This document shows positions 1 to 48,928 of a stretch of DNA of 64,000 nt, one piece after another. The position numbers and the translations under genes were made by a program. Source of the DNA: Cerrena zonata (Eukaryota > Basidiomycota > Agaricomycetes > Polyporales > Cerrenaceae); NCBI GenBank assembly GCA_038087015.1, contig JASBNA010000010.1:806001-870000 (forward strand), given 5' to 3'. The notes under the pieces were generated by a model. It did not search any database. It was given only the letters and a program-made list of their open reading frames with translations, and was not told where the DNA came from. The number at the start of each line of letters is the position of its first letter. The stretch's first letter is position 1.

Positions 1-1650
1 TACTCCTGTACTCCAGTTGTCGACAAGCCAGAGTGACGGCTGATACTAGGGACTGTTTTGTTGGTTTGCTTGTTTTGTTGGTTTGCTAAAGAACATCCCT
101 ATAGTCCATAACAATAGGGGGGCTGTCGTATACTAGAGCCATCATCTGCGAGATTTTGAGGGCATCGATTACAGTTTCATATACGTACAGAGCGTATAAG
201 GCAGAGACGATGAACACAACATTGGTGGCCCCTAAATTTCGACAATAGGGCTAGGTCTCCGCTGCAGCTCTTTTTCGGAAGACAGCCGGCAGCCGATGAG
301 CCTTGAGAGGTTTCCACGAGGACAGTGTTGGAGATAGAAGCATACAATAGTAACGAGAGCGAGTCTGATATGGAATCGGGTCTCCCTATAAATATCGACC
401 CTAAACTGCGGTGTCGAGAAGTACGAAGATACCTACTGACGTGTTGGATGGTCATAACAGTGCCGTCACCTTAGACACCGAGTTCAAAGACTCTTTATAG
501 AGCCGGGCATGGCAGCTAACCTTTCGATGGTCTCGAGTGTAGTGATCTTCTCAGAAGAAGCCAACAAGTATATCCTGCAGTCGCTGTTATCTTATCTTCT
601 TCCTACTATTCAGAGGTAAGGGCAGGTGGAACAAGATGCGAGCGGAGCAAGAGAAGATTCATCCGGGGAGAGGAGGATCAAAGCTCCTGTAGAGTGTGCG
701 GGGAACAATGAAGGCTCTGAGTCGACCATAGCGTGGGACAATTGTTGACTCGAGGGAGCGGCGACGTGGGGAGGAGTGAGTATAGGAGGAATCCATCGAA
801 TGGACCTATTGAGACACGATAGAGAGAAGACACGAAGAGACCTTGGTGACGAAAAGTAGGTGAGCTTTGGTCACCAGCATCCAGTCGGAGAGCGTCGATG
901 AACAGACTGCGGTGTTTGTTCTCAAATAGAGATTCTCTACCCGTCGAAATACCATCCCGACTGCCTTGAGAGCCTTCGACGAGGTCAACAGTATAGACGG
1001 AGGAATATTGTGGATAGAGTTGAGTTGACCAGTCTGCGTTGAATCCAGGTAAGGATCTGGCAAGAGAAATTCACTCTACGTTGCAATGCTGGAGAGGCAA
1101 ACCATACGAAGGGGCGTACGTACCAATAGGATTATCACCCCGGTCCCACCACCACAGACATTAGCTCAGAGGCTACTTGGTATCACACGGGCACATGCTG
1201 AAACATCTGTAACCGTGACCTTGGCCTTTAGGTGGTCTCGAGCATGTGTGTAGCCTTTCCAAGAGAAGCGGCATATTGAAGCCTAGAGAAATAGTCGTTG
1301 TCGCTTGTCGGCCTTCTTTCTTTCAGCAGTAGGATCAGGTGGAACACGAGCTGAACCACAGAAGCTACACTGGCAGTCGACAAAAGACAGTCAGGGTTTG
1401 TAGGGGACGATGAAGGATGCGAGTCGACCATAGCGTGGGTTGATTGCGGGTTCCAGAGAGCGATGATGTTGTCAGGACTGCTGGGTAGAGGAGGAGGAAT
1501 CCATCGAACGCACCAGCTGTTGAGACACAATGGAGAGAAGACATGTTCGAGGACGACTCGGAGGAGTAGGTGACCTTCGGTTGCCAGCATCCAATCAGAG
1601 AGCGTCGATCAACGAGCGCTTGCGACGTTCTCTTCGACGTCATCCTGCAG
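1..1650 (-). pseudogene. R-family module, copy Ra1 (unidentified, decayed)
   Basis: This stretch matches 14.5-15.7 kb (Ra2) and, inverted, 60.5-61.6 kb (Ra3). Shared landmarks are a GAGTCGACCATAGCGTG-type block near 720 and again near 1,420, and an AGAGTGACGGCTGATAC-type block near 30. I read it as an old gene on the minus strand because the longest coding-like frames are there: 120 residues at 1,228-1,590 and 92 residues at 177-455. None continues through the whole module and no domain is recognised. The front block occurs twice (about 600-1,060 and 1,230-1,640), suggesting a local tandem duplication. It lies divergent to the F module that follows. The left end runs off the window. Function unknown. 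Confidence 0.4.
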
Positions 1651-1699
1651 GCTTGGCGACCTACCACTCCCTCCACTCCTACAGCTGTACAGAGCTATT

Positions 1700-3300
1700 C
1701 CGAGTATTCATTTGAGTCTATGCTTATTCTTGGACTACTTTCACAGCCCGCTGGCTCTCCCTATGGAGCATCGCCCATTCATATGCATCCCGACAATTAA
1801 CACCTATGCAGGCCTTCGCACTCGCCTTCAAGCTATTTGTACTAGTTTAAAGCATGCATACTATTCTGCTGATATATCTCATTTACTGGCTTGACGTACT
1901 AAGACTATTACGGATATCAGAATTAAGACATGAAATCGAACGGTTAGGCGTACGTTGTTCGTATCTTCATATCTGGCCAATACAGTATACTTAACAAGTG
2001 GTTTCCTTGCCCTGTTTTGACCTAGTTTGACCACGAAGCTATGGTTCACAGTTGGACAGCTTATCATTTTGGTTATGGATACCACGCCTTCCTTTGTAAG
2101 CTCCCTCCTTTTTCACGATCGTCAGTCGATCAACATTGTTTAGGCTCCCCATGCCTGTGCGCAAGTCGTCCACGTCACGCCTCCACCTACTCTCACTTTC
2201 AGATGCATACCGACCTCGACTCCTCGCTCGACACTCCACCCATCAACATTTGTCAATGGGGAATATTGCACCCTTCATGATCCTCCGCGCCAACACCCGT
2301 TTTCAACAAGCCACACCTTTATAGCTTCGGAATCTCATCTCATCTCAATTTAAAACCGGGGATCCTTGAAACTATCATACCGCGCTCATAGCACAGCACC
2401 TTTCATGTCTCGCTATCTAGGGGATCGAGCTCCTCGCTCGAGTCCTAGCAATACGAACACAACATGGCAGTATCTTTTGACGAGTCCTCACAGTGACATT
2501 CCTTTCGGTGCTGTCCCTTCTATCTTCCTTTACGACAAGACGTACGACTGCCGTATCAGAGAGGGTCAACCACTCTTCTTTGCTTGGAGTATCACATCCA
2601 ACCTTCATCGCCTCTCAATCTATCCATCTCACATCTTGATTGATCCCTCCATCATCTACGCCCAAGATGTATTGCGTTTACGAAGCGCCTTCGAATGCAG
2701 ATATCAGTCTTTTGGGAGTTGTATCCTATCCATCGTGTTGCCTCAGTTCGATTCTCGGTTTCTCGAAGTGAAATTTGTCAACCCCTCGTCTCGATATTTG
2801 CCATGCTTCCTTTGTTCGTTTGGATAGCCTCATCTGATCCTTTTGATGGCTGCCCTTGGACATCCGAGATCCCCATCGTCCAAGCCTGGAAGGGTGTCGC
2901 TGTCATTCTCTATCAAGACGAATCAGGCGACTATTTACCCCGAGAACTTATCCACGGGACTCGTTGGAACATGCTGGTGTTATATGCACACGTTGATGAT
3001 ACTAGAAAGATGTTAGATAGTCAGCCCCCTAAACTTGTCGTAGCTCCGACCACTCAAATCTTTCCGCTCTCGCCACATTACAACACCCACCGAGGCGTAC
3101 GGCGATAACTCTTGAGACTAGGTGTCCTCGTCGCCCTACCGACATACCAGCCATTGCTACGAAATGCGTTCACGTCGGTTGGTTCCTGTTCATGACGTTT
3201 TTGGACGTCTTTCCTGGCGTTCCTAATGATACCTGCAGGCCTTACGCGTTTGCCTTTATGGACTGAATACATCCTATGATTCCTATCCGAACCATTCGTC
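1700..3300 (+). pseudogene. F-family module, copy F1 (unidentified, possibly F-box/LRR-like, decayed)
   Basis: This is related to 10.2-12.15, 15.8-18.1, 18.9-21.9 and 27.8-30.3 kb and, inverted, to 60.4-58.9 kb. The clearest shared sites are a CAATGGGGAATATTGCA-like motif near 2,255 and a block near 2,690-2,830 encoding a short hydrophobic stretch also seen in F3' and F4. Frames are open only in pieces: 153 residues at 2,366-2,827, then 137 residues at 2,695-3,108 in another frame. It is therefore a frameshifted remnant or a gene with many short exons. The family assignment rests only on alternating leucines and a tryptophan-isoleucine-histidine pattern in better copies. It sits divergent from Ra1 and upstream of a D gene, as F3 and F5 do. 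Confidence 0.35.
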
Positions 3301-5640
3301 TCGATGATTCTTTGAATTCGCGCGGAACCTTCTCGTCGGTTCTTTTATCGTCCCTTTCCGGACACCATGATCCCATCTCTCAACTGTTAAATCAGATTTT
3401 GAACGCGAAGGTGTACTTACGGTGGTTCTTGGAGAACTATGCGTGCTCACATCTTTTTCGTGTCTGGGTCACAATAATTCCCCTTGTATATAGATCTAGA
3501 CACTCGCCTGCTAAAAGGGGTGCAGAATCCTCTTTGAAATTGTGATGTACCCCACCGCATCTACGAAAACGCTCGTCTCAGGAGTACCGTTTCTGTGGCC
3601 ATCATCGAGGAGCCCCATCTCATGCTCACACCCTTACGATGGCTGGTGGTGTATCATGACGAGGTATCACCAGTTATGTCGTTTTTTAAACCGCGTTCCA
3701 CACCTGTCATGAAGAGAGGCGATGTTGAAGGTAAGAACGAACTTTGGATCGAGGCCCTTTAATGAAATATATATGTAGCAGTAGGTGAAGGTATGCACAT
3801 ATAGAGATTGGTGATGGCATCCATAGGAGAATGAACATCGAAATGACATATACATCGAGAATTGAGATCGTAGCTGCGATAGTCGCAACATTGGATGAAG
3901 GGCCGATGAAGCATAAGTATACGGTGATTGTTTGGGGCATATCCAGGCTGCTTCCGGTGCTTGGAGGCGGATGTAATTGTATAACGAGGTAGCCGGTTGA
4001 GAGATAGACATCTTGGAGCATGACCAAGTGAAGGTGGTCAATGATTCGAAGCGAGCCAAATGTTGATAAGGGAGAGAGGCCGACGTCAATCGAGACTATC
4101 AACGAGAGGATAGCTCTTAACGCGTCACTTAAATATATAAGGGGCTTGGATCCGGAAACGAGTCTTGACCGCATCACGGAGTAGGACAGGGGGGCAGGAA
4201 TAATCGGGCTTTCCAGGCAAGACAAGAAGCATTGAGCCAGGAAGTTCGTAATATTCTTGGTTTGACCTCGTTCCATAGGAATATGTAGTGAGAGTGGCAG
4301 TACCCTATAACAAAAAGGTCAGCGTAGGGGAAAAATGAGCGCATATACCCACCAATATGAACAGGCTATAGGCGAAAGCGGAAAACAACGAGCATATACA
4401 CGAGATATGGTATTCGTCGCTATTTTGTATGTATGGCGATTGTCATTGTCTCGAGAACTTTCAAATCAAGCCCACAAAGACACTAATTTCGTTATTGATG
4501 TATATAACAGTGTAAACGGGTACTGGGCTGGTAGGTGTGTCAAGACGAAGGTGAACGGACTCATTCGAAGCGATGTGTAATATGACATCCAGCGACTCCT
4601 TTCGATATCGAAGGTGCTGAGGGACGAGTCTTGAAATGACGAGGTTCGGATTTGGCGGCTCGATAAGTATCAACATAAACTTCGTATCCTAGTAGTGAGA
4701 TGAAAGTTTACGATACGCATATCGTACAGTCTCTCTCGATTTGTAGGGAGATTGAGTTGAGGTCGGGTCAGCTGTGGAGAAATCATGATATGACAGATGG
4801 GGGATACGAGGGAAGCCACTCATATGGCTGATGCGGCTGAATAGGAGAATAGATCTAGTAGAGAATTCTGAATAGGTAAAACGGAGTATAGGAGTATTTC
4901 GATGCACACCTATTTCGTTGCAACGCTTCCTGCATGCATCGCGTTATTGTTATTGTAGGAACCCTGTCCCTAGCACTCGAGTGTGTCGAGATATACTCTG
5001 TAGGGAGTAGAACATGGGACTGAGAGAGAGTTCAAGCTAGCAATACTCAATAAGTGTATCTCACCTTGTCCATACGATCATACGAGTCATTCTACCATGA
5101 GTAGCTGGTGAGCTCGAGGCATGGTCGGAGTATGTCAGCTTGAAACGAGTATTGCCGCAGAGACAAAGAAGGAAACATGATGTCTCCGTCTACGGAGTCG
5201 GCCTGGATCAAAGATCCACAGTAAAAGATCCTACAGTATAAGGGAAGACAAGCGGTATTGGTTCGGACTGAGACTCGGAGGCATGATATAGAGAGAGAAG
5301 ATGAGGAAGAGCCGCTCGAGAACCTCACTGGCAATCCTGTACACTCGGGTCTGACATCATCTACATGTTCGGCACGTCCATCGATGTCCCTCGATACAGT
5401 ACAAACTCACCCGCTGACTTCCTTGTGGCACTTCTCGACAGCATGGGCCCTGCACGAGTTGCTGACTTGTAAGTACTCCAGGTGATGTCACACTTGGAGG
5501 CTTCGTACTTCTTCCAGGCTTCCTCTGCTCCATCCAATCAACTGCCTGGCCGTTCTCGTTCCTGAACGCTCTGTACCCTTTTCTACGCATATGATTTACC
5601 TCGGTAGTACTATCAGGCTCGCATCAAGAATGCTGTGCAT
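3300..5640. other. Degenerate spacer between F1 and the D-linked segment
   Basis: No gene can be supported here. On the minus strand a 189-residue frame with a true ATG (4,276-3,707) overlaps a 140-residue frame (4,089-3,667). Neither shows a recognised domain, and two overlapping open frames on one strand suggest low stop density rather than coding. The stretch also carries one copy of a dispersed repeat at 4,895-5,121. The rest, including 4,330-4,690, has no structure I can interpret. Confidence 0.4.
4895..5121 (+). repeat. Dispersed repeat of about 230 bases, copy 1
   Basis: This stretch is the inverse of 34,545-34,774, at roughly 80 percent identity by eye. Both copies start at TTCGATGCACACC and contain a TTATTGTTATTGTAGGA block, a CTGTAGGGAGT block and GACTGAGAGAGAGTTCAAG, ending near ACCATGAGTAGCT. 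The ATG within GATGCACACC opens a short hydrophobic frame that ends at an AG-like site in both copies, so it may be the first exon of a lost gene. No terminal inverted repeats or target duplication were seen. Confidence 0.7.
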
Positions 5641-6060
5641 ATCACTGTATTTGCGTACCATACGATACTGCACGGAGGGTCCCTACCGTAATTCTGTGCC
5701 GAACTCGCCTCAACTAGTTCACGGTAGCCTTCTGAATCGATGGCCCTTGTCCATCCCTAACCTATGAGTTCCTTCAGGCATACTCAACTATACCTAGTCT
5801 CTGATTCGGAAGAGATATCTGCGCTGGTAGAAACAAGGTACTCTATCATGTGTTCTATCATCCTCGCCACACTGGCATCCTCAAGCTGCAGCCCTTCAAT
5901 AGATGATGATGAAAGATTCCGCACCCTTCCTATCCATACTACCTTGAACATCGTGTTTGACCTACTCACCCTGTAGCAAAATGGACGATGCTTCGATCCC
6001 TGGATCTCGTATCACCTGGTATTGTGTACCAGCTCACTTTCGGAGCTAATCACCCAGAAG
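5640..6060 (+). pseudogene. D-linked upstream segment X, copy 1
   Basis: This block precedes a D gene and recurs, inverted, at 58.8-58.2 kb. A shorter part recurs near 22.62-22.76 kb. Shared landmarks are GAGGGTCCCTAC, TCGATGGCCCTT, GTTCCTTCA-GCATACT, GATATCTGCGCTG and a final CTTCGATCCCTGGATCTCGTATCACC. Copy 3 has the longest frame (160 codons, no ATG start). Here the frame is broken by stops. It may be the 3' end of the F gene or a separate small gene; no domain is recognised. Confidence 0.4.
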
Positions 6061-6479
6061 AGCATACTCCCTATCATCTTACTTGCATGGATGCAACACA
6101 CTCAATGTTAACCCCCCCCCTCCCCAAAGTTTCGAGTCTTCTACCTTGATTACTATGCCAATCTCACCTCATTGAGGGTATGACACTTCGGGTCATTGTT
6201 GTAGCTCACAACTACCAAAGACCTTGCTACAACATGTTGTCTCCATCTTTTGTGTCGATGCTAGTCATCTCAGTTACCATTTTTCTTTGGTCTGTTTACA
6301 CAAACCCTATTGTAACTGTCATACATTGTAAACTGCATGGCTATTTTGATGTGTTGTATTATTTGTCCGGTAGGTGGTTCATTTATATATATGTGCATGT
6401 TTGCTTTTATGCCTCTACCCTCAACCTTTCCAACCTCAATTCATCTCACACCAATTGAGTCTACTTCTGTCTCGCTATT

Positions 6480-8322
6480 ATGTCTGATGAGCTAGGTTTC
6501 ACTCCTGATGAAGCTAATCTCCAGATGTATGAGTTCATATTTTATTACTATAGCTATCTAATACATGTTCTCTAGCTCTCAAATTCAGCTTAAGAACTTC
6601 ATTTTTACTATTGCATTGAGTAATCACTATGATATAATGGATAGTCACAAACTAAAATTATTCATAGCTCTTCCTGTCTATGATACAATTTTGTCCTTCC
6701 CAAAGGAAGTCAAGTGTATCTGGCAAGGACAGTTTGGCACAGGGCCTGTTCTGTACCTGTTTATCAGATATGGCACTATATTCAATGTGCTTTTGAGCCT
6801 GCTTGAAGGGTTTCCAACCTCTAAAACAGTGATTGTAAGTAACATCTCAAATACTGTTACATTCCACTAAATCAAGATGCTAGGGGTAAATTGATTATAT
6901 TCATCACAAGTATGATACTACTAACACTTCAATAAGTTGCAAGGTGCTATATTTTGTAGTTAATATTGTAGATCTCTGTTGTCTTCTTTCATATGCAGGC
7001 AGGTGACTAGTATATCTCAATAACATGGACTAACAATATAGCACTCTTATAGCATTTGACTGTGTGCGCATCTGGAGCATCTGCCAACATGCATGGATTC
7101 CCACTATCCTGGTATTTGTGTTGAGTATGTTTGAGCCAGCTATCAATATCGTGAGTGTCAATATCCACTCAATATAAATCAGCACTTATATTATAAATAG
7201 TATGCCCGGCTTCCAACCTTTGTGGGATCATATCTAGTTGTACCATCAGGTCCATTGGCAGGGTGCTGGACTGAGACAGATATCATCCTGTATAGATAGT
7301 AAGCCAACTAGTCTCAAAGAAATATCGATATTGACATCTGATGTAGTTGTATGATACCACTATTTCACTTTCATATATGCTGATAGGTGATTTTTACAGT
7401 GGGTGTGATTACCAGAGCAATCTCTGTGACTGCAGATGCTGTGGTGCTAGGTCTCACCTTGTGGAAAACAATCTATATTTTTAGAGAAGGGGCAGAGGTT
7501 AGAGTTGGTAGCAAGCTTACTACTAGACTGGCATATGGAGGTAGTATTGTCAATATCAACAATTCCATATTCACCAGCTGATATAACTGCTTATAGGATC
7601 TATGCAATTTGGGTAGGTTGTATATACTTAAATACTCACAGGCATCACTCAATAGTTTTAGCATATTGCTTCTTCTCAACATCCTTGCAGTGCTTCTTGA
7701 TATTTTAGCTGTTGCAGGAAATGGTATTGTAAGCGACAGTAATTGTTATATACATATGAAATTAATAACATCTTTGTAGACCTCTCCAAATGCTTCAGAG
7801 TTTATCTTTATCCAACAAGTGTCAGTCAACTTCTTGAATTCTTTTTTAACCTTTTTAACTATATTTTATAGCCTCAACTCTATCATCCTCTCACACTTTA
7901 TCCTGAGCCTCCGCTCTACCTATCATACAACCAGCAATCCCTCACAGACAAGCTCAAAGCAGTCAAGTCTGCACTTTGCCTCAGCTGTAGAAGGGAACAT
8001 GGGAGCCAGCCTAAGTGGTTCTTGGGGAAGTAACAGAAATGCTGATGAAGAAGAGACAGAGAAAGTCCAGTATTCTGGTTATCCATTTGCTGCTGGATTG
8101 GCTAATATCCAGGAAGTCAGTGGAGATGAGAATGGGGAGGAGATGCCACAGGCTGGGTGAGTATTATTACCTCTACTTACTCAGATAATCACTAACATTT
8201 ATGGTTATATTTGAAGCCCATCTGGTATCACTCATGACTCTGAGGTTCTCACCACAAGTATTGGTACCAGTACTTCTGCAGTTGGAGGGATTGAGGAGAT
8301 TGAGTTACAAGAGATTGTCTAA
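6480..8322 (+). CDS. DUF6533-family membrane protein, copy D1 (multi-exon)
   Basis: DUF6533 proteins are Agaricomycete membrane proteins with about seven predicted helices and no assigned function. The diagnostic N-terminal motif is seen at about 6,670-6,810: a VYD-x2-LSFPKEV-x2-IW core followed by LYLFIRY. Later exons encode AFDCVRIW (near 7,060), a TRAISVTADAVVLGLTLWKT helix (7,405-7,480), and SLNSIILSHFILSLRS (7,875-7,920). An acidic tail is spliced through the GTGAGT near 8,158 to an end in IELQEIV. Start ATG 6,480 and stop TAA 8,320-8,322 are conserved in D3. About seven short introns are needed and the first junction is unresolved. The gene is AT-rich compared with the housekeeping genes. 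Likely intact, but splicing is unproven. Confidence 0.7.
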
Positions 8323-8599
8323 ATGTTGGGATATAGCAGCAGACTATTTATTAGTGATCTTCTGTCTATGTATGTGCTTGTCCTACTTTATGTTTCTTCA
8401 TTCCCTGTTTTCTATATATATTGACAGTGTATATTCAACACCTTAACTTACACAACAGGGATCCCAAACTCATACCTCAAATCAATTTACCTGTACCAAC
8501 TGCAGCTACTAGTAATATTAATGACTTCACTGGGAGTCATGAACATACTCCTGTTATGAAAAAACAAAGGTCCTGGGGATCAACTTCAGAGTGAAGTTG

Positions 8600-10080
8600 T
8601 CTCCCCCAAGTCAACACGTCACACATCTAACTTGCGAGTATCCTCCGTGTTTCGGATTCTGTGAATAATGAACTTGACCTTCTGGATATTGGTCCAGACG
8701 TGATGGCTCAGCATGGCGTCGGATGGATTGGCACCTACAATGTCCAGGATGGCGGCGTCGGTACATGTCATACTTTTTTTAACAGCCGCAGGTCTGGGGA
8801 CTTGGATCACAAGCATTCGAAGGAGACCACTCGTTACAATTCCGGTTGTAAAGCTTTCCAGTACAACAGGACTCGTATCGGACAAACTTTGATGCCAGCA
8901 AAAACGGGCTTGTCGGAATCTCCCGTCAATGGTCGAGCTCCAATCATGACACCTTTGAAATATACCAAGAGCATCTGAGCTTGTACATTCGTGAATAAAG
9001 CTGATACGTACAAGTATTGAAAGTCATCATTGACATCGAGGATCATTTTTTCTTCGGTAGCCTCACCACGGCAAAACACTCACTGCGGTACCATTAAAAC
9101 ATTCGTTAGGCTGGAAAATTGAGCCGGTTACCTTTCCTCAGAGTATTGTGCTAATGGACCTCTAGTACGCCTGAATGAAGCACGCCGCTCTTGGCACTTG
9201 CTTACATCGCTAATAGGCCGGATCGATGGGGCAAGTACTACTAGACGTTATGCTGAGTCGTCAGAGGATGCTCCAATGATCACATACCTGATAGCAGTAG
9301 TGCAACAGGTTTATTTCAGAGCCACGCCGTAGCCATCTCTGCAGCGTTGATCATACGTACAGAACATAAACTGCGGACATGATTCAGATGAGGTCAATGT
9401 TTGCGACTCCAATACAATCGAGTCTCGGTTCTTGTTCTGGAACCAAAATTTTCTGACCGTCGGATTGTCCAGTATCTGTGGTACCTCTGGAGGTTTCGAC
9501 AAGGCCCATGTTCCAGGTCGAAGGATACAAGCATCTTGTGAGCGATACCGCTTGACGTGGAGTCCAAGAGATAACTTCAGTCGTCCTATGGTGTAATATC
9601 ATGCAAGCACTGAGCATACAAAGAAGCGTACCTACAAATGCAACGGCCGATAATTCTCTTCACCGGATGATCAGGCTGAGTAGCTAACAGAGAAACAGGC
9701 ATATTGAAGCAAACCTTTCCGTAGTCTCGAGCGTAGAAGGCTTCTCAGAAAGGCAGCACACTCACCCTCGAGCTTCCGGGACAGAGCAGTCATCGTGATC
9801 CCATTGTCTACCTGTTCTTCAACAGCAGGGAGGAAGTAAAGCAAGAGGTCAGTCGACCAGAGAAGAGCAAGTCAGAGCCTCCGCAAGGGGGAGAACCAGT
9901 AAGACTTTGAGTCGAGTCAACTATACTTAGTGTGGGACAATTGTTAGTTTGAGGGAGCGAGACTGCAGAGAAGACGACCAGGTAGTGGCGGAATCCATCC
10001 AACGGTCTTGTTGAAACACAGTGGAGAAGACACGAAGAGGACGATGAGGATTAGGTGAGCATTCAGCGTCGATCAATTCG
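8600..10080 (-). pseudogene. R-family module, copy Rb1 (unidentified, decayed)
   Basis: This is the counterpart of 26.4-27.66 kb (Rb2). Both share TTGTACATTCGTGAATAAAG followed by CTGATACGTAC (here 8,979-9,009) and an ATCTCCCGTCAATGGTCGAGC-like stretch. The 5' block near 9,800-10,000 carries the GTGGGACAATTGTTAG and GAATCCATC motifs common to all R copies. Minus-strand frames of 81 (9,079-8,834), 77 (9,617-9,384) and 64 residues look like separate exons. Their 3' part differs from Ra copies, so two R subtypes exist: Ra before F-D and Rb before F-K. No domain is recognised, and no uninterrupted splice model could be built. Confidence 0.35.
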
Positions 10081-10199
10081 GGCGCTTGCTTGTCATCTCT
10101 CCGTTCCGTTCATTACGATGCTATCGACAACGACATAGCTTACTCTACCGACAATGAACTGAACTGCTACGAATCTTGAAACCCTTGGCCTACTATTCT

Positions 10200-12150: not shown

Positions 12151-12229
12151 AAATATTGTCAGCGTGGGAAATAATGCTTCTAGTTATTCTGACTTTACAC
12201 GCTGGACCTGTCATCACTACACCATCACC

Positions 12230-15700: not shown

Positions 15701-15779
15701 TGCGACGTCATCGCCTCGACCGTTCTCTCAGCTGTTACAGGGCCCACCATGATCTACTCTGACATTTTCTAGGCCAGTA

Positions 15780-21890: not shown

Positions 21891-21899
21891 AAACTCTTT

Positions 21900-23148
21900 T
21901 GTCTGATAGTCACCACCGACAGCTACAGAAGCTCAACATCTTGCGTTCGACAATTTAATCTTCAAGTGTTAAACTTCTCGACTTTTTGCTCCACTCGTGA
22001 CGCGCTTCACTCGATCGCTCACCCTAGTTTCTGATATCAGTACTCATTGGCCGTGACCAAAAGCTCACATCATTTTCGCGCCATTGCTAGCCTTGACGTA
22101 TCAGTGATTCTCGCTCGGGCAAGGGTTGTGGATCTAGTGGGCATGCTAATATTAATCCACATCATCTATCTTCATCATGTCTGCCCTCGACCAATATCCA
22201 ATGTCGTTCACTTCCCACATCTCCGAGATGGATGAATACGAAACATACAGTGTAATTCTATGTCATTCACTCTCACTGGTATGCATTGCCGGTTCCCTCG
22301 TGAAGAAGACACCGGTGACTATTTGAAAACCGTATGTCTTATCGCTTCTCCAAAGGAGAACTATTTTCTGTGGCGTTTCTTCCATGAAGTTTCAATGAAA
22401 ACAAACTTCACCTTGTCATCATTGTATTACTCCATGATTGCGTGCAATGTGCCACCCACCCATTCCCCATTTTCATGATACATTTCCCAGAAGTTCAAAT
22501 GCCCTCCTTTCTGTACCTTCAACCTCAATCAGTCAATGTTGTTTCAGGCCCACTTCGGGAACACGGTGATATGGTCAACTGCTTCTATTACGCTCATCTC
22601 TTCCATCATAACTACCCACCTTTGCTAGATGGCAATGAAAGTCTCTGCACTGCCTCTTCAATACCTCGTTTTACTTGACCACCCCGACATTATTGCAAAA
22701 GGGACAATACTTCGATCCCTAGATTTCGCATCATCTAGTTGATATATAATCTCACGTCTGCCGGATCTAACTTCTCAGAAGAACACATGCCTGATCTTCC
22801 CACGTGCATGGGAGCATTCCACTCGATCCTGATTCCTGACCCCTTCATGGTTCTTGTAACTAGACAGCTACCAGGGCCGCCGCTACTGCATGATATCTCT
22901 TTCTTAGTACTTGTCCTGTTCATCACAGTGATGTGTGTTTGTTCTCCGGCCTCGGTCTCTTTGTGTTGCTGTTCCTTCGCTTTTGGTCAGGACTACTGGA
23001 CACTGTTAATAGCATGATTATGTTGGTGTATGTTTGTCTGATATATAGCTCACTTATATACTGATATTCTGGTTTTCCCTCAAGATATCTCAATTCTCAA
23101 TCCTTCCATTCCTACACAAGCTGCATTATCTGCTTTCATCTTGCTAGT
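21900..23148. other. Spacer with remnant of segment X before D2
   Basis: Frames are short. Near 22,620-22,760 a piece matches segment X (GAAAGTCTCTGCACTGCCTC, then TTCGATCCCTAGATTTCGCATCATC). The 22,739-23,017 plus-strand frame contains a hydrophobic run but has no ATG and no homologue in the other units. I see no gene that can be supported. Confidence 0.35.
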
Positions 23149-24830
23149 ATGTCTGAACAGCCTCATGGAGTGATTGATCTGATGTATGAGGTCATATCCT
23201 ACCATTATGCCTGTCTCTGATATATGTTCTCTAGCTCTCAAATTCACCTTGAGAATCTCATTTTTACTGTGGCACTGAGTGAGTACCATGATACAATTCT
23301 GTAATCATAATTTAAGATTCTTCATAGCTCTTGCCATATATGATGCAATTCTCTCCTTCCCCAAGGAAGTCAGATGTATCTGGAAAAGAGGATTTGACAC
23401 AGGGTCAATCTTATATCTGTTTATCAGAAATTGCACCATCCTCAGTATACTTCTGTGGCTGCTAGAAGGATTTCCAAGTTCTACAACAGTGATTGTAAGT
23501 GATATCTCAAATGCTCATGTATTTCACTAAATCAAATTGTCAGGGGTTAGTGATACACTCACCACAGATATAATACTTCTAACTCTTCATTAAGTTGTAA
23601 GATACTATTTATTACAGCTGATATTTTAGATATCTGCTGTCTCCTTTCATATACAGGCAAGTCACTAGAATATTTCCAGTAAAGAGAGCTGACTATATAG
23701 TGCTCTTATAGCATTTGATTGTGTGCGCATCTGGAGCATCTGTCAGCATGCATGGATTCCCACCATCCTGGTATTTATGTTGAATATGTTTGAACTGGCT
23801 ATAAATATTGTAAGTGGCAATCTTCACTCAATATAAATTAGCATTTACATTACCAATAGTATGCCAAACTTCCAGACTTTGTGGGATCATATCTAGTTGT
23901 ATCATCAGGTCCGTTGGCACATTGCTGGGTTAGGTCAGATATCATCCAGTATAAATAGTAAGCAAACCAATCTATTGAAAATATCAATATTAATATTTGA
24001 AGTAGTTGTATGACCCCAGTATTCTACTCTATAGCATATGCTGAGAGATGATTCTTACAGTTCCTGTAATTACCAGAGCAATCTCTGTGGCTGCAGATGC
24101 TGTGGTATTAGGTCTCACCTTGTGGAAAACCATCTATATTCTCAGAGAAGATGGAGAGGTCAGAGCTACCAGCAAGCTTACCACTACATTGGTATATGGT
24201 GGTAATACTGTCTATATATTAATAGTTTCATACTAAATAGCTGATATCTTTGTTGACAGGCTCTCTTCAATTCAGGTGAGTTGTATATGTTTCTATTTGG
24301 TTATTAGTGTTACTGAATAATTTTAGTATACTGCTACTTCTCAATATCTTTGCAGTCATTCTTGATATCCTAGCTGTTGCAAGTAACAATGGTGTAAGAA
24401 ATAGGGATACTTTCTACTCTTATTAGATCTAATCAAAGTCTTCTATAGAGCATCAAAAATGCCTCAGTTTTTATTTACATCAAAGATGTGTAAATCAACT
24501 TATTAAACTCTTTGTCATATCTCTAACTTACATTTCATAGTCTTACCTCTATTATTATCTCACACTTCATCCTCAGTCTCCGCTCTATCTATCACACAAG
24601 CAACAATCTCTCACAGACCAGCTCAAATCAGTCAAGTGTGCACTTTGCCTCAGCTATCATGATAGAGGGGAATATTGGAGCCACTCTAAGTACCACTTGG
24701 GGTAGTAACAAAGATGAGGAAGAGGAATAGATAGAGCAAATACAGTACTCTTAATATTTATTTTTGACTGGATTGGCTTATATCACAGAGGCCAATGGGT
24801 CTGAGGATATGGAGGAGCTAGGTGAGCACT
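23149..24830 (+). pseudogene. DUF6533-family membrane protein, copy D2, disabled
   Basis: This copy is collinear with D1 and D3. The start ATG 23,149 aligns with theirs but exon 1 diverges. The core motif is preserved near 23,325-23,470 (AIYDAILSFPKEVRCIWKR, then LYLFIRN). The AFDCVRIW-like exon (near 23,710), a TRAISVAADAVVLGLTLWKT helix (24,070-24,130) and a TSIIISHFILSLRS-like exon (24,545-24,590) are also present. In the acidic C-terminal exon the frame meets TAG near 24,728 and TAA near 24,752 where D1 and D3 stay open. The later exon found in D1 and D3 (ending IELQEIV or IEMQEIV) was not found. I call it a pseudogene of the DUF6533 family. Confidence 0.65.
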
Positions 24831-25306
24831 GAGAACTAATGATTCAGATAGTTTGTATTTAATAAACTTTGAGCTACAGGATTCTGTTTAGATATTCATC
24901 TGAATTTTGATACCCATATCTATAATACTTGACTGCAGTTCATATCTAAGTGATTGTGGTAAGAAAGTGACTGAGACCATGAATTCATGATCGATGAGTA
25001 GTTTTTAGTACTGACCATGACCCCTCGGGTGCACCATGACATTATTGCCGATGTTCTAGAATTCTCCAGATCAAAATAGTGATCCGGTTCTTCCTTCTCA
25101 GCTATCTGTTGGTCCCTCCTCCGCATACATTGATGCCAACAATGTATCCGGTATAACTTTGAGTAACCGTCTTACCAGATTTTGAAATTAAGCCTGCTCC
25201 AGCACAGTGAACACTTCAACAGATGGTCACCATTGCGAGGAATCCAGCACTGTTGCCTTCCCATAGAAAAGTGATGGATATACTGTCAACTGTTGCCATT
25301 CGGAGG

Positions 25307-25314
25307 TATAAATA
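25307..25314 (+). promoter_or_regulatory. TATA box of the small secreted protein gene
   Basis: TATAAATA lies 110 bases upstream of the ATG at 25,424, in a stretch with no counterpart in the other array units. Pyrimidine-rich sequence follows it, as is common at fungal transcription starts. The assignment is positional. Confidence 0.5.
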
Positions 25315-25423
25315 TATCTGCAATCAACATTAGTGTTTCTCCCGCCCTCAATATCTATCGCCAGCACTATCACTATTGACCAAAGTCAAGCCTTAATTCT
25401 GCCTATAAAGTCTACACAACACT

Positions 25424-26021: not shown

Positions 26022-26379
26022 GCACACTCGAGGGAATTCCAAGTCCTATGAAGGGAAAAGGTGGATTTGGCGACCATTGGGTTAGAAGTTCTGTTGGTGA
26101 TTATGGATAGTGAATGGATAACGTTTACGGAGGCAGAGATTTATGACTACCTAGCGAATGATTTTCTTTTGGTATCGACAATACTTCTATCGCAATGCAT
26201 GTGCTCTTGGAAGGCTAAACCACTGCCTACACGCTGGCTCTCTGACACTCATAATCGCCTGTGGATAGACAGATGATTTACCAGTCGTTACTCGCATATT
26301 GCATTTCGTACTTCACACCACAATATTACAATGTAATGCATTTCCGAATCCCTGGCTGAACAAGCGCGACAGCGCCGCT

Positions 26380-27660
26380 ATGGACGAACATCCAACGCAG
26401 AAGTTGTATCAAGCAAACTTTGTCGCTAGCAAAAATGGGTTTGTTGGAATCTCCCATCAATGGTCAAGCTCCATTCATGACACCTTCAGGATATACAGCG
26501 TCATCAGTCAGACCATCTGCGGGTACTCAGATGCTCTGCATTTGTACATTCGTGAATAAAGCTGATACGTACCAGCACCGATGAGTCGTTACTTCTTCTC
26601 CAATAGCTTACCCCCAAGCCTCGCATCGGCACAATCTTCGCTGCGGTGCCATCCAAAGATTCGTCCTCAGATTGAGACGGCGATCCTATTACTCCAGTAG
26701 TCCTCTGGTATGCCTGAGTGGTTGACGCCGCTCTTGCTCCCATCATTAATGAGCCGGAGTGACAAGACTAGTACTAAAGGTTTGTCACAGAACAGTTCGA
26801 TTATCGCGATGGTTGATGGCAGCAGTGTACTAGTCGTACACCGAGATTCTCTTTATATCAATGTCGATATCATTGATGGAGGAGTTCCGCGCCTGAGACA
26901 GGTAGAGTACCAGACACGATGAGGGCAACGTTGGTAATATTTCGACATTCAAAGTACACTGATCAGATCTTCGGTGGAAACTAGTCGTAGTCCCAGTTCC
27001 CGAACAGAAAATCCCTGACCATTGAAGAACCAAACATCCACGATATTTCGAGATGATTCGATAGGGTTAATATGAGAGATCAGAGAACGCTGCGGGCAAG
27101 GTTCAGTTGACAACTCTACATGGAGTCCTAGAAGGGATCTTGTAGGAGAGATTTAGCCTATGTTGAAGTGTCAGAGAAGCATCAGATGTATGAAGATGAA
27201 GAGACGTACTTACGAGCGAGGTTCCCATACCAGCCCCGTCACCTCGGGCTCAGGGCTAATGGATATTACATTAGCACAGAGTTATACATATCGAAACGAG
27301 CCTTTGCCTTTCAGTACTCGGTAGTCGGGAGTGTAGTACATATCCTTCTCCGAATGAAGCGACACGATAGAGCCTAACCTTCCAGGACAGAGCAGTTGTC
27401 AACCTGTCTTCTCTCCGTTCTTTGGCAGCAGAGGCAGGTAAAGTAAGATCTGAGCAAGAGATAACTAGGCGATCTGAATCAGAGGATGAGGCGTTTTTCA
27501 TCAGACGATTGTTGCTTCAAGGGTGCGATAATGTGCGGAGGACAATCAGGTACTGGAGAAATACATTGACTGAACCTGTTGGAGCACAGTAGAGACGTGA
27601 AGAATCCTTCGAGGAGAGAGAGCCTCGGCTGGGAACCAATCGGAGAACGCCGATCAATAT
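26380..27660 (-). pseudogene. R-family module, copy Rb2 (decayed)
   Basis: This is the counterpart of Rb1. The run TTGTACATTCGTGAATAAAG plus CTGATACGTAC recurs at 26,543-26,573, followed on the minus strand by an 80-residue frame (26,746-26,504). The 5' block near 27,420-27,660 carries shortened versions of the common R motifs. The middle part matches Rb1 poorly and holds frames of only 60-76 residues. No intact product. Its divergent partner is F4. Confidence 0.35.
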
Positions 27661-27779
27661 GAATATCATAGGCGTCTCCGACTCGACTCGGGTGGCGACA
27701 TCTCTTTCTCTCTCTCCATGACTCTAATTCCTCACTCGCCTTACAGTACAGACGTCGACGATGGTCTGCTGTGAATGCC

Positions 27780-30300
27780 TCTGAGCCTGTGAACCTACAC
27801 CTCTCTCACTTTCTTCTAAACCGCTTGGTCGCCTAGCTGAGCATCGCCCATTCCTATGAGAGCCGACAAGCCACATCTATGAGGGCTTCCAGACTCGCCC
27901 TCAGAATCCTCATTGGCTTAAAGCGGGACTTTTATAGTGGTGCATCTCGCTTTTAGGTCCTAGGATTAACTAGGAGATCATTGATTGGACCTAGAGCATG
28001 AACACAGATAGCTCAGCTTACGTACCCCTATATCATTACATGGCGGGTACAACTCACCAATCCATAGAATGGTTTCTCTCTTATTTTCGTTTGGTTTGAG
28101 CGTGAAGCCGAGCCACGTCACCTCGGACTCTAGCTATAGACTCTGTAACAACATAACCTTCAGCCTCTTTTCCGGACCCTCAACCTCGGTTGATCAGTGT
28201 TCCTGGACCTACGATACATGTTTTCAGGTATCACACACGGTTACTTCATCAAAGACCATCTTCAAATGCATACACCTTCGGCTTCTTTGTTCGACGCCAC
28301 ACCCATTGTTCAACACCTCTTCATTTGTAAATGGGACGTCATGTGTTCCCCTAAATTCTCATCGTCTTGGTGTTTTCGTCTCCACATTTCCTCAATGTAT
28401 TCATGGTCGTCTATCCCCAGAGTCTGCTGGCTCTCGCCTTGATTTGGGGACCGTGAATAGATGACACTCATTGCACGGTATTCTCATGGTATGTTCTCAG
28501 CATTCAGTACATCAAACTGTTCCTTCTCGATGCTGATGATAACCATCAAATTGCTTACAGTTCATGTCCGGCCTCACTTGCATCTTTTCCTAATTATACA
28601 CCATCATTCTTCTCGATACCAATCCCCATATCCTGGACATTTTCCATTTCAATACACCTACCATACCATACGAGGTCAAGCACCCTTCCCACCCGGAGTA
28701 TCACATACAACCCTCATCGTCTCGCAGTACACTCATTTCCCGTCTTGATTGATCCCCTATCGTCCACAATCAATACCTCGCCTCTATGTGAGGAATTCGA
28801 ACGTGGATTTAGGCTTTTGGATATCACACTCCGTCCGTCCTTTGGACTATGTTTGAATCCCACGCCTTCAAAGTAGAATCTGTCGATTCCTTGTACTAAG
28901 ATTCTCCTCTCTTGCTCGTTTGGGGAGCTCCCTCGGACATCCGAACTCCCCTTTACCTAGGTCTGGAACAGTACCATCACCAGGCTATGTGGCTATCACC
29001 CCAGAACCTAGCCACTTGTTCTCGTTTGCGAGGTTTACTGTGACATACAAGCATACAGCTGCACGCTTACCTTCGTGACTCCATATTGACATCCTATCTG
29101 TCTCTGATGTTTTCAAATGACTCATCACTATACTACCCAAATCATCGTACCTTCGATCAGTCCAGTTCGTTATTCTCCGCTTCTCCGATCGTCCCATCTG
29201 TGTCAAGAAGACAGGAAAGCCTAGCATCGAGTGTCATTGGTTTCTCGCCGACGCTATTACGCAGTGACATTAAATGCGATCCCCGATCGTGAACCGGTAC
29301 ACCTCTAAGTTATCTATGTCAGCACTTCCAGCAATATTTGCCTCTCTCCGCTGGGACTTGCACTCTCATCTCATGGACTTCGTGTATCTTGGATTATTAT
29401 TTTCGATGATCCTGCGCCATCGATACTTGGCTACGTCTTCTCATACCTCCACGATTGCGTCCAATAGTCGTAAGGTTCCAAGTGTGAGCGCTGGCTATAG
29501 GATGATGGTACGTACTCAACTCACTATATGGAGATACTGTTTGTTTATGATATCATCTTTCTCCCTAGATCCCAATTCCATCTTGAAACCACGCTATAGC
29601 GCGTCAAGCCTGCTATCATGTCAGAATCGCTGTCTCAATATCGACTTTCATCCTCGCATACCTGTAATACCACCCAACGCCAATCCGTTTACCCATTCCA
29701 TTTGCTCGAATCCCTGGTTATCCCACCAGACACCGCATACTATCTCCCTCTACGGTGATGAGTGATATTAGCACTTCAGATTCTCGCTGCTGTTACTTAA
29801 TGTCTTATTCGTGCCATTTTCTTGACACAATCAGGCATCGCTGTCTCTCACTGCACACCAAATGTTCAATCCTCTCTTTGCACCACGACAACGAAGCGTT
29901 CAACCTTCGTCCTAACTAAAGCTTTGATTTACCTCGAACGTTTTCATTCGGTTGAATGTCGTAATCTCACCCTAGTCATATCTCACGTTCGACATCGTTA
30001 CAGTGCCTTTAACCGTCACGGAATCATATTCTCGGAGCTTTGGGCGTAAAGACTCCAGGTTTTCAGACAGCTCGTCTCGAATTATGGTCCATCTCGCCAG
30101 GTGCTCATACCTTTTACTCTACCGGATGTCCTCGATCCCACCTAACATTGTTCTATAGTACTTCCTCCCCCATTTGACTCTACCGATGATCACTCTTGTT
30201 GACCTCCCGTTCACGGGTTTATATATCCCTCTTTGTACATTGAATTACAATGGTGCTGGGTGAAGCCTATTGGGGTCAACATGTCACTGCTCTCGATGTT
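27780..30300 (+). pseudogene. F-family module, copy F4
   Basis: Landmarks shared with F2 include CCTCAACCTCGGTTGATCA, TTACTTCATCAAAGACCATC (near 28,240), CACACCCATTGTTCAACACC (28,300) and AAATGGGACGTCATG (28,330). Open frames of 131 (28,069-28,464), 95 (28,461-28,748) and 163 residues (29,274-29,765) are in different phases. The region after 29,770 has weak similarity to F3 near 17.6-18.1 kb. It is followed within 130 bases by K2, repeating the F2-K1 order. I see no intact gene; leucine-rich spacing is the only functional hint. Confidence 0.35.
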
Positions 30301-30428
30301 TACTTCCATGGTATGGTTTATTTCTAAGATGTCCATCAGGTGCTCATATTCAATCCTACAGGGTACAGATCAGTACTCGACATATGTGAGTTCGTGGATC
30401 CATGATACCTAACAGCGACGCCGTATGT

Positions 30429-31260
30429 TGAAAATCTCCTTTCTCATGAAGACCTACTTCAATCGATCTCTACACCTCTCCGACTTCAAGAAGTAGATGA
30501 AATAGTAAATAAGAGTTGTCAACCCAACCCCGCAAATACTCCTTGTCTCACTTCGAAACCTCTCAAAGAGGAGATCAGGGACGAGATAATCTGGCTTTCG
30601 ACAGTACCAACTTTCAACTTTATTGTACAGACATTCCTCGATATTAATAACCCGCCACATATCCTGGAGGCCATGCAATCTCGTACGTTAGAAGGTCCTA
30701 CTCGCTGTACTCATGCTGATGTTGGCGCAGGTGCATTGATTACTTCTGCGACGTAGTGGTACAACCCATCCTTGATCTCTTCTATTCCATACGTACCAGT
30801 ACCTCATGGCCGCCATTCACACACAGCAAGTCGACATATGATAGTACGTACAGATGATATGCGCACGACAACTAATGCTGACGATACCATAAGATTTTTC
30901 CTTGGTCACATTTCACAAGCCCCGAACCGATCCTACACTGGTACTGGAAAGTCAACCTGCTTCTCCGCAACCGTTGCCTGTGACTATACTTTTAGTGAGC
31001 GTCACTACTTGTCGAGTCATTGAATTGACTGAGGATGGCCTCGATAGACCCCTGCTGTGTTACAGGATGTTGTTGCCTCAGACCCTCACTCGCTGACCAA
31101 GATCTCAGACTGCTGAAACCCATCTGCACATCTGACCCGAATACTTGTGTCACCGCTTTCGAAATGCAGAATGTTATCACCTTGCGGCTACAGCACGAAA
31201 CGGATATACGAGAACTCATATGCAGTCATAGTCCCATGCTCAGATCGGTGAGTATATGTG
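30429..31260 (+). pseudogene. Protein-kinase-like gene, copy K2, truncated
   Basis: This copy matches the first four exons of K1 and K3. The exon-1 start region reads GACGCCGTATGTTG where K1 has CCATGCCGTATGTC, so the ATG is lost. Exon 2 is recognisable at 30,731-30,840 (ATTGATTACTTCTGCGACGTAG). The exon-4 part (LQHETDIRELICSHSP) ends near 31,250 at a GTGAGTA. Everything after that, including all kinase-like motifs, is missing; downstream sequence is unrelated. It is a 3'-truncated pseudogene and marks the right edge of the left arm. Confidence 0.7.
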
Positions 31261-32520
31261 TTAGTCTGTTTGTGCATGTACTAACTCTCCTTCATCATGA
31301 TACGTTACTGTTGCTCTCATAACATCTTCGTATGGGAAAAGGTCGAGAAAAGACGTTACGTGTTTTATGGCTCAGTCACAGTGATTCTCTTCCTTCCCAC
31401 CGGACGTCCCTTCCCTCAGTTTGCCTCACTTGAGACCATGAGACCAAAGACCATCCACCATCCTTCGACCTACCTGAATGATTATTCGCACCAATATCAC
31501 AGTATTTGTGCATATGCATTGCGGGGTGTCACAACCTTTCCTTGTTGAGATTATGTAATCCTTCTCACGTTGCTTCAAAGATTAGTGGCTCCATCGTGGC
31601 CCATTTTTAAGAACCTTATTCTTTCGACAAGACTCGTACACCGATTCCAATTCTTGCCGGTCACTTTGCTCTTTTCGGATGTTGTACCCTCGTTGATTTC
31701 ATGAGCGTTGAAGGGATTTTTTGAGTCGAAGATTGGAGATGGCAAACTCCTATTGTTCCGCTTTGTACATTCGTCCCGGTACCCTCGCACTTCCTCCACC
31801 GTAGACCCCCTTCATGAAACAATGATATGGAAGGCTGTCCACGACCACGAGGATAATCTTCCATGCTAAGTGTCATCCAGACGCGATGTTCCCTATTACT
31901 CAACGGTGAGTAATCTCTCTCCACTGATTGATCCCCCTTGCCATAGACTCATGCTCTCGATTCACTCCAAACAGAGAAACACTAAGATTATCATCTGTTC
32001 TATCATTAATTGCGGGGGATTACAACTACTACGTATATGTGATGTCTAGCTGACGCATGCGAGTGGTTGTAACACCCATTTGGGTCTTTCTTTACTTCGT
32101 CTGGATTATGTTCACATGTAAACCAGGTGCTAGCGATTCTCCAACCCAATCTTGTTTGACATCTTCAATGCTCAGAAGACGGGATCAAGGTTCCAGGACC
32201 GAAGAAGTGGTCATACACTACCTCGTGTCAGAGATATTCGTACCGTAATCCGTAAGTGTCCTCGTTCATGACTTGTGAAAATGTAGGATCTGAATTTTCG
32301 CAACAGCTCAGAGTGCTGAACATACCGTGCTGTCTGTTTTCGTATACGACTCGAGGATATTTCGTAGCAATCCTTAGGATATCCCCAGGAGTTTATCCTT
32401 ATTTGAAGATTGAAGCTTTGATATCTGTTGTATCGATGTATTGATCTATATTAATAGTCTCCGAGTCTAGTACCAAGAAGGCAGACAGCAGGTGCAGGAA
32501 GCTCCCTCGATATTCCTTCA
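31260..32520. other. Edge of the array, no gene seen
   Basis: Both strands contain only frames of 60-90 residues without domains, consistent starts or splice patterns. The stretch is where homology to the other units ends, so it includes the breakpoint between the array and the single-copy core. A minus-strand 87-residue frame at 31,924-31,661 was considered and not accepted. Confidence 0.4.
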
Positions 32521-42401: not shown

Positions 42402-42409
42402 CTTCAAGC

Positions 42410-48926: not shown

Positions 48927-48928
48927 GT

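What the first reader, a model, noticed from the sequence alone, without database searches (positions are those of the whole stretch)
1..31300. Higher-order gene array with alternating D and K units separated by R-F cassettes
Reading both strands, four module families recur in fixed order: R (reverse), F, D (DUF6533), R, F, K (kinase-like), and again, with a period of roughly 15-18 kb. R occurs in two subtypes: Ra always precedes F-D and Rb always precedes F-K. This means the duplicated unit was a six-gene block, not single genes. Such multi-gene segmental arrays of an uncharacterised membrane protein and a kinase-like protein are unusual, and I know of no description of this combination.
Basis: seen in the sequence. 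Interest (0 to 1): 0.78.

Follow-up and report, generated by a model that had tools for sequence, protein, structure and literature searches.

The report
Duplicated membrane-protein gene array in mushroom
A wood-decay mushroom carries a long, repeatedly duplicated run of seven-pass membrane-protein genes, a few with a kinase-like gene beside them, whose 'R' spacers look like decayed copies of one cell-housekeeping gene: a vivid but recognisable kind of expanding gene cluster.

Summary
The R-F-D-R-F-K order is really there: seven collinear blastn matches (65-76% identity, offsets 14.8-18.2 kb) join 1-14.4 kb to 14.5-31.3 kb, covering 29% of the first unit. The reading needs correcting. (1) By the tests made only D and K are genes. 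D is a DUF6533 seven-pass membrane protein with 13 exons, one of 2 nt. K has a kinase-like fold. (2) R is a decayed copy of an ER Hsp70 gene (Lhs1/HYOU1-like) that is intact 38 kb left of the window. F shows no coding signal; its origin is unknown. (3) The array is larger: 14 D copies over 218 kb, all facing a single-copy island, but only 4 K places in the 244 kb examined; D/K alternation is local. (4) The Ra/Rb rule fails: an Ra-type R precedes F-K at 67.4-68.4 kb. (5) Window 5.9-35.3 kb recurs collinearly on contig C3 (89-93% identity) except at D1 and one F, which look exchanged; D copies carry strong recombination signal. Best reading: a lineage-specific receptor-like array in Cerrena zonata, grown by segmental duplication and reshuffled by ectopic conversion; no sign of a transposon family. 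Function is inferred. Most unusual detail: the 2-nt micro-exon, open in 17 of 17 copies.

The parts
1..1080 (-). R1, decayed copy of the Lhs1/HYOU1-like Hsp70 gene
   Evidence: nt homology to R6 and R3; ORF 89-250(-) matches Lhs1 residues 157-200, E 0.039
1990..3450 (+). F1 module, pyrimidine-rich, no coding signal
   Evidence: 6 copies, largest codon-phase z 1.7; 59% C+T
5200..6470 (+). upstream flank that travels with D; present at 12 of the 14 D copies, 0.69-0.81 identical to this one
   Evidence: no codon periodicity
6480..8322 (+). D1, DUF6533 seven-pass membrane protein gene, 13 exons, 406 aa
   Evidence: PF20151; clean ORF; hydrophobic segments
7347..7348 (+). 2-nt micro-exon (TT) between a 48-nt and a 51-nt intron
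   Evidence: 17 of 17 copies keep both introns and an open frame here
8600..10100 (-). R2, Lhs1 relic upstream of F2-K1
   Evidence: ORFs match Lhs1 residues 99-133 (E 3.2) and 351-411 (E 1.6), in gene order; weak
10250..11900 (+). F2 module
   Evidence: 4 copies, largest codon-phase z 1.8
12230..14390 (+). K1, kinase-like gene, 639-aa model; one intron acceptor near 14.03 kb is not AG in this copy and the model reads through that intron
   Evidence: fold of relative P0004
14475..15700 (-). R3, Lhs1 relic
   Evidence: 69% to R5 over 1,238 columns; residues 189-213, E 4.2; weak
15750..17500 (+). F3 module
   Evidence: 72% to F5 over 910 columns
19050..21250 (+). Fa, second F-like module before D2
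   Evidence: ORF of 248 aa longer than composition predicts (P 0.007)
23140..24930 (+). D2, diverged D copy; 97.1% to its place-mate on C3; 3 stops under the D1 splice model
26398..28000 (-). R4, R-type module (no Lhs1 hit of its own)
   Evidence: 70.6% to R2 over 170 columns
28000..29800 (+). F4 module; differs from C3 at 28.4-30.2 kb (0.68-0.84 against 0.87-0.99 around)
30421..31268 (+). K2, truncated K (K residues 2-233)
38500..45500 (.). stretch found whole only here, faced by both arms (EF-1 beta and OXA1-like genes)
56157..57901 (-). D3, first D of the right arm
59614..60475 (-). F5 module
60524..61707 (+). R5, Lhs1 relic
   Evidence: residues 188-215, E 1.7
61780..63940 (-). K3, kinase-like gene

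Best explanation
A lineage-specific, receptor-like gene array in Cerrena zonata. Shown: a DUF6533 seven-pass membrane gene (D), in 12 of 14 cases with its upstream flank, exists 14 times over 218 kb of contig C10, 5 copies pointing right and 9 pointing left towards a single-copy island; K and relics of a neighbouring ER-chaperone gene (R) travel with some of them; blocks of about 12-20 kb are repeated within C10 and a 29-kb block on contig C3; D copies are mosaics of one another. Inferred: growth by unequal exchange and segmental duplication that once caught part of Lhs1 beside K; the caught chaperone pieces decayed; a good part of the D copies stay alive under moderate purifying selection while ectopic conversion reshuffles them. 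Inferred with less support: D are surface receptors of an unknown signal, and K an intracellular kinase-like partner.
For: 14 D and 4 K places. Collinear C3 block. Identity drop at D1 (0.76-0.90) and F4 (0.68-0.84) against 0.87-0.99 in the other aligned 300-bp bins. D2 pairs with its C3 place-mate (97.1%, support 100/100), D1 does not pair with its own. Home-made site-compatibility test on 12 of 17 D copies, 252 sites: 0 of 1000 permutations as low, at each of three window sizes. dN/dS 0.34-0.88, mean 0.47, in 21 pairs of 7 full-length copies. Intact Lhs1-like gene, 861-aa model, C-terminal HDEL; one exon is HSP70 at E 9.9e-38. Lhs1 query against six-frame ORFs: 8 of 8 hits with E<=1 outside the gene lie in R loci (12 of 15 at E<=10); six shuffled N-terminal queries gave 0,0,1,0,1,0 hits, none in R. 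N-terminal query: 9 of 9 at E<=1 in R loci and on the strand called reversed; 17 of 25 (16 oriented) at E<=10. K fold: of 50 listed PDB rows 49 are protein kinases and one a PINK1 complex.
Against: Individual R-Lhs1 matches are weak (best 1.3e-6; the rest 0.04 to 4.2), R4 has none, and R6 against the PDB gave no Hsp70. F has no identified source. Whether C3 is a second place or the other nucleus is not settled. Only 7 of 17 D copies gave a full open frame under one splice model; 8 had 1-4 stops and 2 could not be modelled. The kinase match has TM by target of only 0.26-0.49. No expression data. I found no proof that any DUF6533 protein is a receptor.
Confidence: 0.7

Rival explanations
1. One reading: a fixed six-gene block R-F-D-R-F-K duplicated in tandem, with Ra tied to D and Rb tied to K.
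For: Seven collinear matches between the two units; C3 repeats the window's 5.9-35.3 kb in the same order.
Against: 14 D versus 4 K places; Ra-type R6 precedes F-K3; R and F show no coding signal; four right-arm places carry the K2 flank but no K was found there.
Confidence: 0.1
2. R and F are parts of a transposon family that inserts beside D and K.
For: Many copies with the same divergent R/F orientation.
Against: R and F DNA only on C10, C3, C80 (lower-bound searches); R resembles Lhs1, whose exon has one close match in the genome; no Pfam hit at E<=1 in the R and F frames scanned, one strand each.
Confidence: 0.04
3. The C3 copy is the other haplotype of a dikaryon, so the array sits at one place and only looks duplicated between contigs.
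For: Equal-scoring DUF6533 hits suggest haplotig pairs (C3/C88, C22/C30, C46/C94); 89-93% identity.
Against: The stretch at window 38.5-45.5 kb has no second copy on C3; C3 departs from C10 after 35.3 kb with an inverted segment.
Confidence: 0.25
4. No conversion: D1 and F4 diverged faster than their surroundings by selection or mutation.
For: F4 (9.4 per kb) and the D1 flank (10.5 per kb) also have more indels between C10 and C3 than the other stretches (0.6-6.9; D1 gene itself 4.3).
Against: D introns diverged with exons; a stretch of D1 is 98% identical to another C10 copy; neighbouring sites are far more compatible than permuted ones; another F, F2, is 97-99% identical to C3 over 10.1-11.3 kb.
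Confidence: 0.1

Closest known systems
DUF6533 (PF20151) family, with Coprinopsis cinerea SNB1 'Snowball' (PMC10949477, abstract and one passage)
   Same: D matches PF20151 above its cut-off and has seven strong hydrophobic regions; SNB1 is reported with DUF6533 and seven predicted transmembrane helices
   Different: snb1 is described as conserved and needed for fruiting-body patterning; D is a multi-copy array, and all 11 hits listed are Cerrena zonata (search limited to the 7,999 best word matches)
DUF6534 putative fungal GPCR class (PMC12842992, passages)
   Same: Basidiomycete seven-pass proteins of unknown ligand, reported enriched in Polyporales, Agaricales and Boletales
   Different: Different Pfam family; relation of DUF6533 to it not tested here
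Agaricomycete proteins labelled 'Protein kinase domain-containing' (Grifola, Hebeloma)
   Same: K's alignment finds them; the model of K relative P0004 matches protein kinases
   Different: No Pfam kinase or FunK1 model at E<=1 for three K proteins and ten relatives
Olfactory-receptor-type clusters (birth, death and exchange of seven-pass genes; recalled)
   Same: Clustered seven-pass genes, dead copies, exchange between copies
   Different: Here mixed with kinase-like genes and chaperone relics; receptor role unproven
1-nt exon of Fusarium CYP621A (PMC12940212, abstract)
   Same: Ultra-short exon needed to keep frame in a fungal gene
   Different: Here 2 nt, in a basidiomycete family, seen in 17 copies; no RNA evidence

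Membership tests
DUF6533 family (PF20151) | Pfam match above curated cut-off | tested here: met
   D1 at C10:812664-812783, 42.7 bits versus 24.1; all 14 array copies listed above cut-off
DUF6533 family (PF20151) | seven membrane-spanning segments | tested here: met
   hydropathy of D1 gives seven strong regions plus one weak one, by my grouping of the 13 peaks printed; no TM predictor used
G-protein-coupled receptor | ligand-dependent G-protein signalling | not testable with these tools
   no experiment; PDB profile search of D gave no match; structure of D not predicted
Protein kinase superfamily (K) | kinase fold | tested here: met
   AlphaFold model of K relative P0004, mean pLDDT 70.8, pTM 0.59; of 50 listed Foldseek rows 49 protein kinases and one PINK1 complex, best E 1.5e-5, TM by target 0.26-0.49. 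Moderate quality; an earlier 6-sequence model was useless
Protein kinase superfamily (K) | match to a Pfam kinase model | tested here: not met
   no kinase model at E<=1 for P0001, P0004, P0005, ten relatives and three frames of K1
Protein kinase superfamily (K) | catalytic activity | not testable with these tools
   nearly invariant K422, E442, E448 and a DWH...IDF stretch seen in alignments; roles recalled
FunK1 (PF17667) | Pfam match | tested here: not met
   (family number from PMC8955403, passage)
Lhs1/HYOU1-type ER Hsp70 (intact gene) | HSP70 domain, ER leader and retention signal | tested here: met
   PF00012 E 9.9e-38 for one exon; model begins with a hydrophobic leader and ends HDEL (meaning recalled). 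Assignment to Lhs1/HYOU1 within Hsp70 is by recall
R as relic of that gene | R modules match it better than chance | tested here: met
   8 of 8 hits E<=1 in R loci, shuffled controls none in R; 9 of 9 in R orientation, no rotation of the R map as high. Single matches weak; PDB search of R6 negative
Dispersed transposon | copies scattered over the genome | tested here: not met
   F1 and the 10-12 kb query on C10, C3, C80; R3 on C10 and C3; lower-bound searches
Array under ectopic gene conversion | mosaic sequence between copies | tested here: met

The most novel reading that the evidence does not exclude
A diversity-generating sensory locus of a mushroom: two arms of seven-pass receptor genes facing one island, in which D and F cassettes are swapped as discrete pieces by conversion, K kinases serve as the signalling partner, and skipping or using the 2-nt micro-exon switches each receptor off or on.
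Probability: 0.08. Interest if true: 0.8.

Novelty: new member of a known kind. Interest (0 to 1): 0.45.

Why it matters
DUF6533 proteins are described as basidiomycete-specific (PMC10949477, passage), and snb1 is the only functionally studied member that my searches listed. An array of 14 related copies with block duplications of different ages is a natural experiment on how such genes multiply, exchange sequence and die. The conserved 2-nt micro-exon is absent from all 11 annotated proteins aligned and gives a direct RNA test. The chaperone relics give an internal landmark for the array's origin.

Tried and rejected
Pfam scans of R, F and upstream frames found nothing; R was recognised only through a neighbouring intact gene. 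A PDB search with the best R fragment gave no Hsp70 match (only a chance row, E 0.86). A local search for a source of F found none; F as a relic of K or D was rejected (no F locus among the K- or D-profile hits listed). F as a coding gene was rejected on periodicity and because 4 of 5 F modules have ORFs no longer than composition predicts (Fa is the exception, P 0.007). Indel lengths were not informative: few were multiples of three in F, but the same holds for D with its introns (18 of 107), and R3-type copies had 11 of 28. K remnants at right-arm K positions: only one short match (E 6.9e-5) to a stretch of P0002 that is not shared by the other K proteins. Telomere repeats: no array at the five contig ends read, at most one copy of the hexamer, so a subtelomeric place cannot be claimed. 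Rfam: nothing in 1-35 kb. The first K structure (6 sequences) was useless, mean pLDDT 31. D was not folded (both jobs went to K).

Counts that go against the reading: under one splice model 7 of 17 D copies are fully open, 8 show 1-4 stops, 2 could not be modelled (only small boundary shifts allowed, so 7 is a lower bound). Skipping the micro-exon gives stops in 15 of 17, not all. In the compatibility test 12 of 17 copies were used; the five most diverged were left out. Lhs1 hits outside R: 3 of 15 at E<=10, 8 of 25 with the N-terminal query. K is not confined to the array: one search also lists K matches at C10:254-299, 638-657 and 761-764 kb, C3:94 and 114 kb and C73:75 kb.
Full report
Where it lies. 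The window is C10:806,001-870,000 of a 55.5 Mb, 171-contig assembly. I fetched C10:746,001-806,000 and 870,001-1,010,000 and C3:86,001-136,000 and use window coordinates throughout; negative or >64,000 numbers lie outside the window on C10. '244 kb' is C10:766,001-1,010,000.

Observation. Self-comparison gives collinear diagonals between 0.7-13.1 kb and 15.5-31.2 kb with offsets from 14.8 to 18.2 kb and 65-76% identity: R, F, D, R, F (two pieces), K. They cover 4,170 of 14,400 bp. A third, inverted set lies at 56.2-63.9 kb. So the order seen by eye is real, but most of each unit has no match in the other.

The genes. D1 (6480-8322) has a 13-exon model with a clean 406-aa frame, matches DUF6533, and shows seven strong hydrophobic regions. 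One search lists 115 DUF6533 matches in the genome (lower bound, haplotig pairs included), by my count of the table 24 on C10 and 6 on C3. K (12230-14390, 639-aa model) has no Pfam match; the 17 rows of its profile search are six Cerrena proteins, six without a given name, and five other Agaricomycete proteins: Grifola and Hebeloma (labelled 'Protein kinase domain'), Pluteus, Abortiporus and a Termitomyces protein with an F-box. A model of relative P0004 built on 17 sequences (mean pLDDT 70.8) matched 49 protein kinases and one PINK1 complex among the 50 rows listed, best E 1.5e-5, TM by target 0.26-0.49. K1 has a changed acceptor in one intron; the three other copies readable in that alignment have AG there. 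K2 is truncated.

R is a relic of a chaperone gene. Among the ORFs grouped with R by blastp was one of 253 aa at -39.1 to -38.4 kb; it is HSP70 (E 9.9e-38) and belongs to a gene at -41.1 to -38.1 kb, modelled as 861 aa with a hydrophobic start and a C-terminal HDEL, that is, an Lhs1/HYOU1-type ER chaperone (name by recall). Its exon has one close match in the genome, itself; the other 15 rows are Hsp70-like at 25-35% and one R locus at 38%. With the full protein as query, 8 of 8 six-frame hits at E<=1 outside the gene, and 12 of 15 at E<=10, fall in R loci defined by DNA homology; six shuffled N-terminal queries gave 0,0,1,0,1,0 hits, none in R. With an N-terminal query it is 9 of 9 at E<=1, all on the strand on which R was called reversed, 17 of 25 at E<=10; no rotation of the R map reached 9. 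Single matches are weak (1.3e-6 at best), so the claim rests on their joint placement and on residue order (about 92-135, 155-219, and 351-411 in R2). R4 has no such hit. The intact gene is head-to-head with a K copy, the same arrangement as R-F-K.

F shows no coding signal. Six copies of F1 and four of F2 show no codon-phase signal (largest z 1.7 and 1.8; Fa 2.2; R modules 2.3 and 1.8), against 4.8 for D with 14 copies and 4.0 for K with 3 copies. Indel lengths did not discriminate. F is 58-60% pyrimidine on the + strand, which accounts for its ORF lengths in 4 of 5 modules. Its source is unknown.

The array. 14 D copies lie between C10:776 and 994 kb: 5 in + (starts -29.6, -15.9, -3.3, 6.5, 23.1 kb) and 9 in - (57.9 to 188.2 kb), spacing 9.8-19.6 kb except 34.8 kb across the centre. 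All 14 face the centre, which holds a stretch (38.5-45.5 kb) found whole only here, with EF-1 beta and OXA1-like genes. K has 4 places in the 244 kb and further relatives elsewhere on C10, on C3 and on C73. Larger collinear duplications: 120.9-140.2 with 154.7-174.5 kb (offset about 34 kb, 88-92%), 108.3-125.0 with 174.1-190.3 kb (about 65 kb, 77-90%), 66.9-79.6 with 151.9-165.2 kb (about 85 kb, 82-84%). Hence several duplications of different size, not one repeated unit.

The Ra/Rb rule. R6 at 67.4-68.4 kb is 75% identical to R1 over 937 columns and precedes F-K3. The block D + R is shared by -3.7 to 0.9 kb, 72.1-67.4 kb and 157.1-152.4 kb with different sequels. F does have a subtype seen before K (F2, F4, F6, 66-70%), but relatives of F2 also lie at 82-83 and 151 kb, where no K was found.

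Copy on C3 and exchange. C3:87,673-119,870 is collinear with 5,907-35,307 in five blocks of 88.6-93.1%. In 300-bp bins the aligned parts are 0.87-0.99 identical, but D1 (5.9-8.2 kb) falls to 0.76-0.90 and 28.4-30.2 kb (F4) to 0.68-0.84. In a tree of 17 D copies D2 pairs with its C3 place-mate (97.1%, 100/100), D1 does not; pieces of D1 and of its C3 counterpart are 98-99% identical to yet other copies. On 12 of the 17 copies, neighbouring informative sites are far more compatible than permuted ones, 0 of 1000 permutations reaching the observed value at each of three window sizes (a home-made test of the PHI kind). This is the signature of conversion or recombination between copies. Whether C3 is a second place or the other nucleus is open; the 38.5-45.5 kb stretch is not on C3.

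Micro-exon. In D1 a 48-nt and a 51-nt intron between exons 6 and 8 leave two bases. In 17 of 17 copies (14 on C10, 3 on C3; introns 48-49 and 50-59 nt; bases TT in 15, CT and TG in one each) both introns keep GT...AG and the frame reads on as Y[LFWV][GPA]VI; skipping the two bases gives stops in 15 of 17. Two more distant D genes at C10:752 and 759 kb show the same by eye. A strict DNA pattern of the double intron hits 16 places in the genome, 11 of them array copies, and the reversed control 0. None of the 11 annotated proteins aligned shows this junction. A 1-nt exon in Fusarium CYP621A is published (PMC12940212, abstract).

State of the copies. With one splice model 7 of 17 D copies are fully open, 8 have 1-4 stops, 2 failed. 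The 7 give dN/dS 0.34-0.88, mean 0.47: moderate constraint, strongest in alignment columns 200-350 (0.25-0.31), weakest in 50-200 (0.68-0.80).

How it works. Shown: copy number, orientation, block duplications, mosaic D copies; supported jointly: R as relic. Inferred: unequal exchange extended the array after a piece of Lhs1 was caught beside K; caught pieces decayed; D is kept. DUF6533 member SNB1 is reported as a predicted plasma-membrane seven-pass protein needed for fruiting-body patterning (PMC10949477, abstract and one passage); DUF6534 proteins are proposed as GPCRs (PMC12842992, passages). A sensory role for D with K as partner is therefore plausible but untested; I put a receptor role at about one in three, a D-K pathway lower.

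Novelty. My literature searches listed no paper that by title or abstract start describes a D-K array or the genome structure of Cerrena zonata; the library is open-access only and I read no more than the passages named. The kind, a birth-death array of seven-pass genes with exchange between copies, is known (recalled from receptor clusters). My confidence in the best explanation was lowered from 0.72 to 0.70 on checking, because the indel argument did not hold.

Noticed in passing
window 7347-7348 with introns 7299-7346 and 7349-7399; same in 16 other D copies: Predicted 2-nt micro-exon, frame open in 17 of 17 D copies; double-intron pattern at 16 places genome-wide, reversed control 0.
   Followed up: partly
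window -41,092 to -38,112 (C10:764,908-767,888): Lhs1/HYOU1-like ER Hsp70 gene with an open 861-aa model ending HDEL lies at the array's left edge, between two K copies.
   Followed up: yes
window 48505-55702: LTR retrotransposon with 423-bp LTRs 99.8% identical, hence probably a recent insertion; gag and RT-integrase-chromodomain ORFs; a 0.28-kb inverted repeat lies in its middle.
   Followed up: no
C3:122,036-123,191 and 134,845-136,000 (end of the fetched stretch): Perfect inverted repeat of at least 1,156 bp near where C3 stops matching the window at 35.3 kb and resumes inverted; near-identical hits on C88.
   Followed up: no
window 35.3-37.7 kb: About 95% copies on C3 and C88 and a 69% copy at C10:1,000-1,002.5 kb; a 188-aa ORF here has no Pfam match.
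   Followed up: no
window 14.0 kb (K1): One K intron acceptor is not AG in K1; the model reads through the intron without a stop.
   Followed up: partly
window F modules, 2-30 kb: F modules are pyrimidine-rich on one strand (58-60%) and of unknown origin; Fa holds a 248-aa ORF longer than composition predicts.
   Followed up: partly
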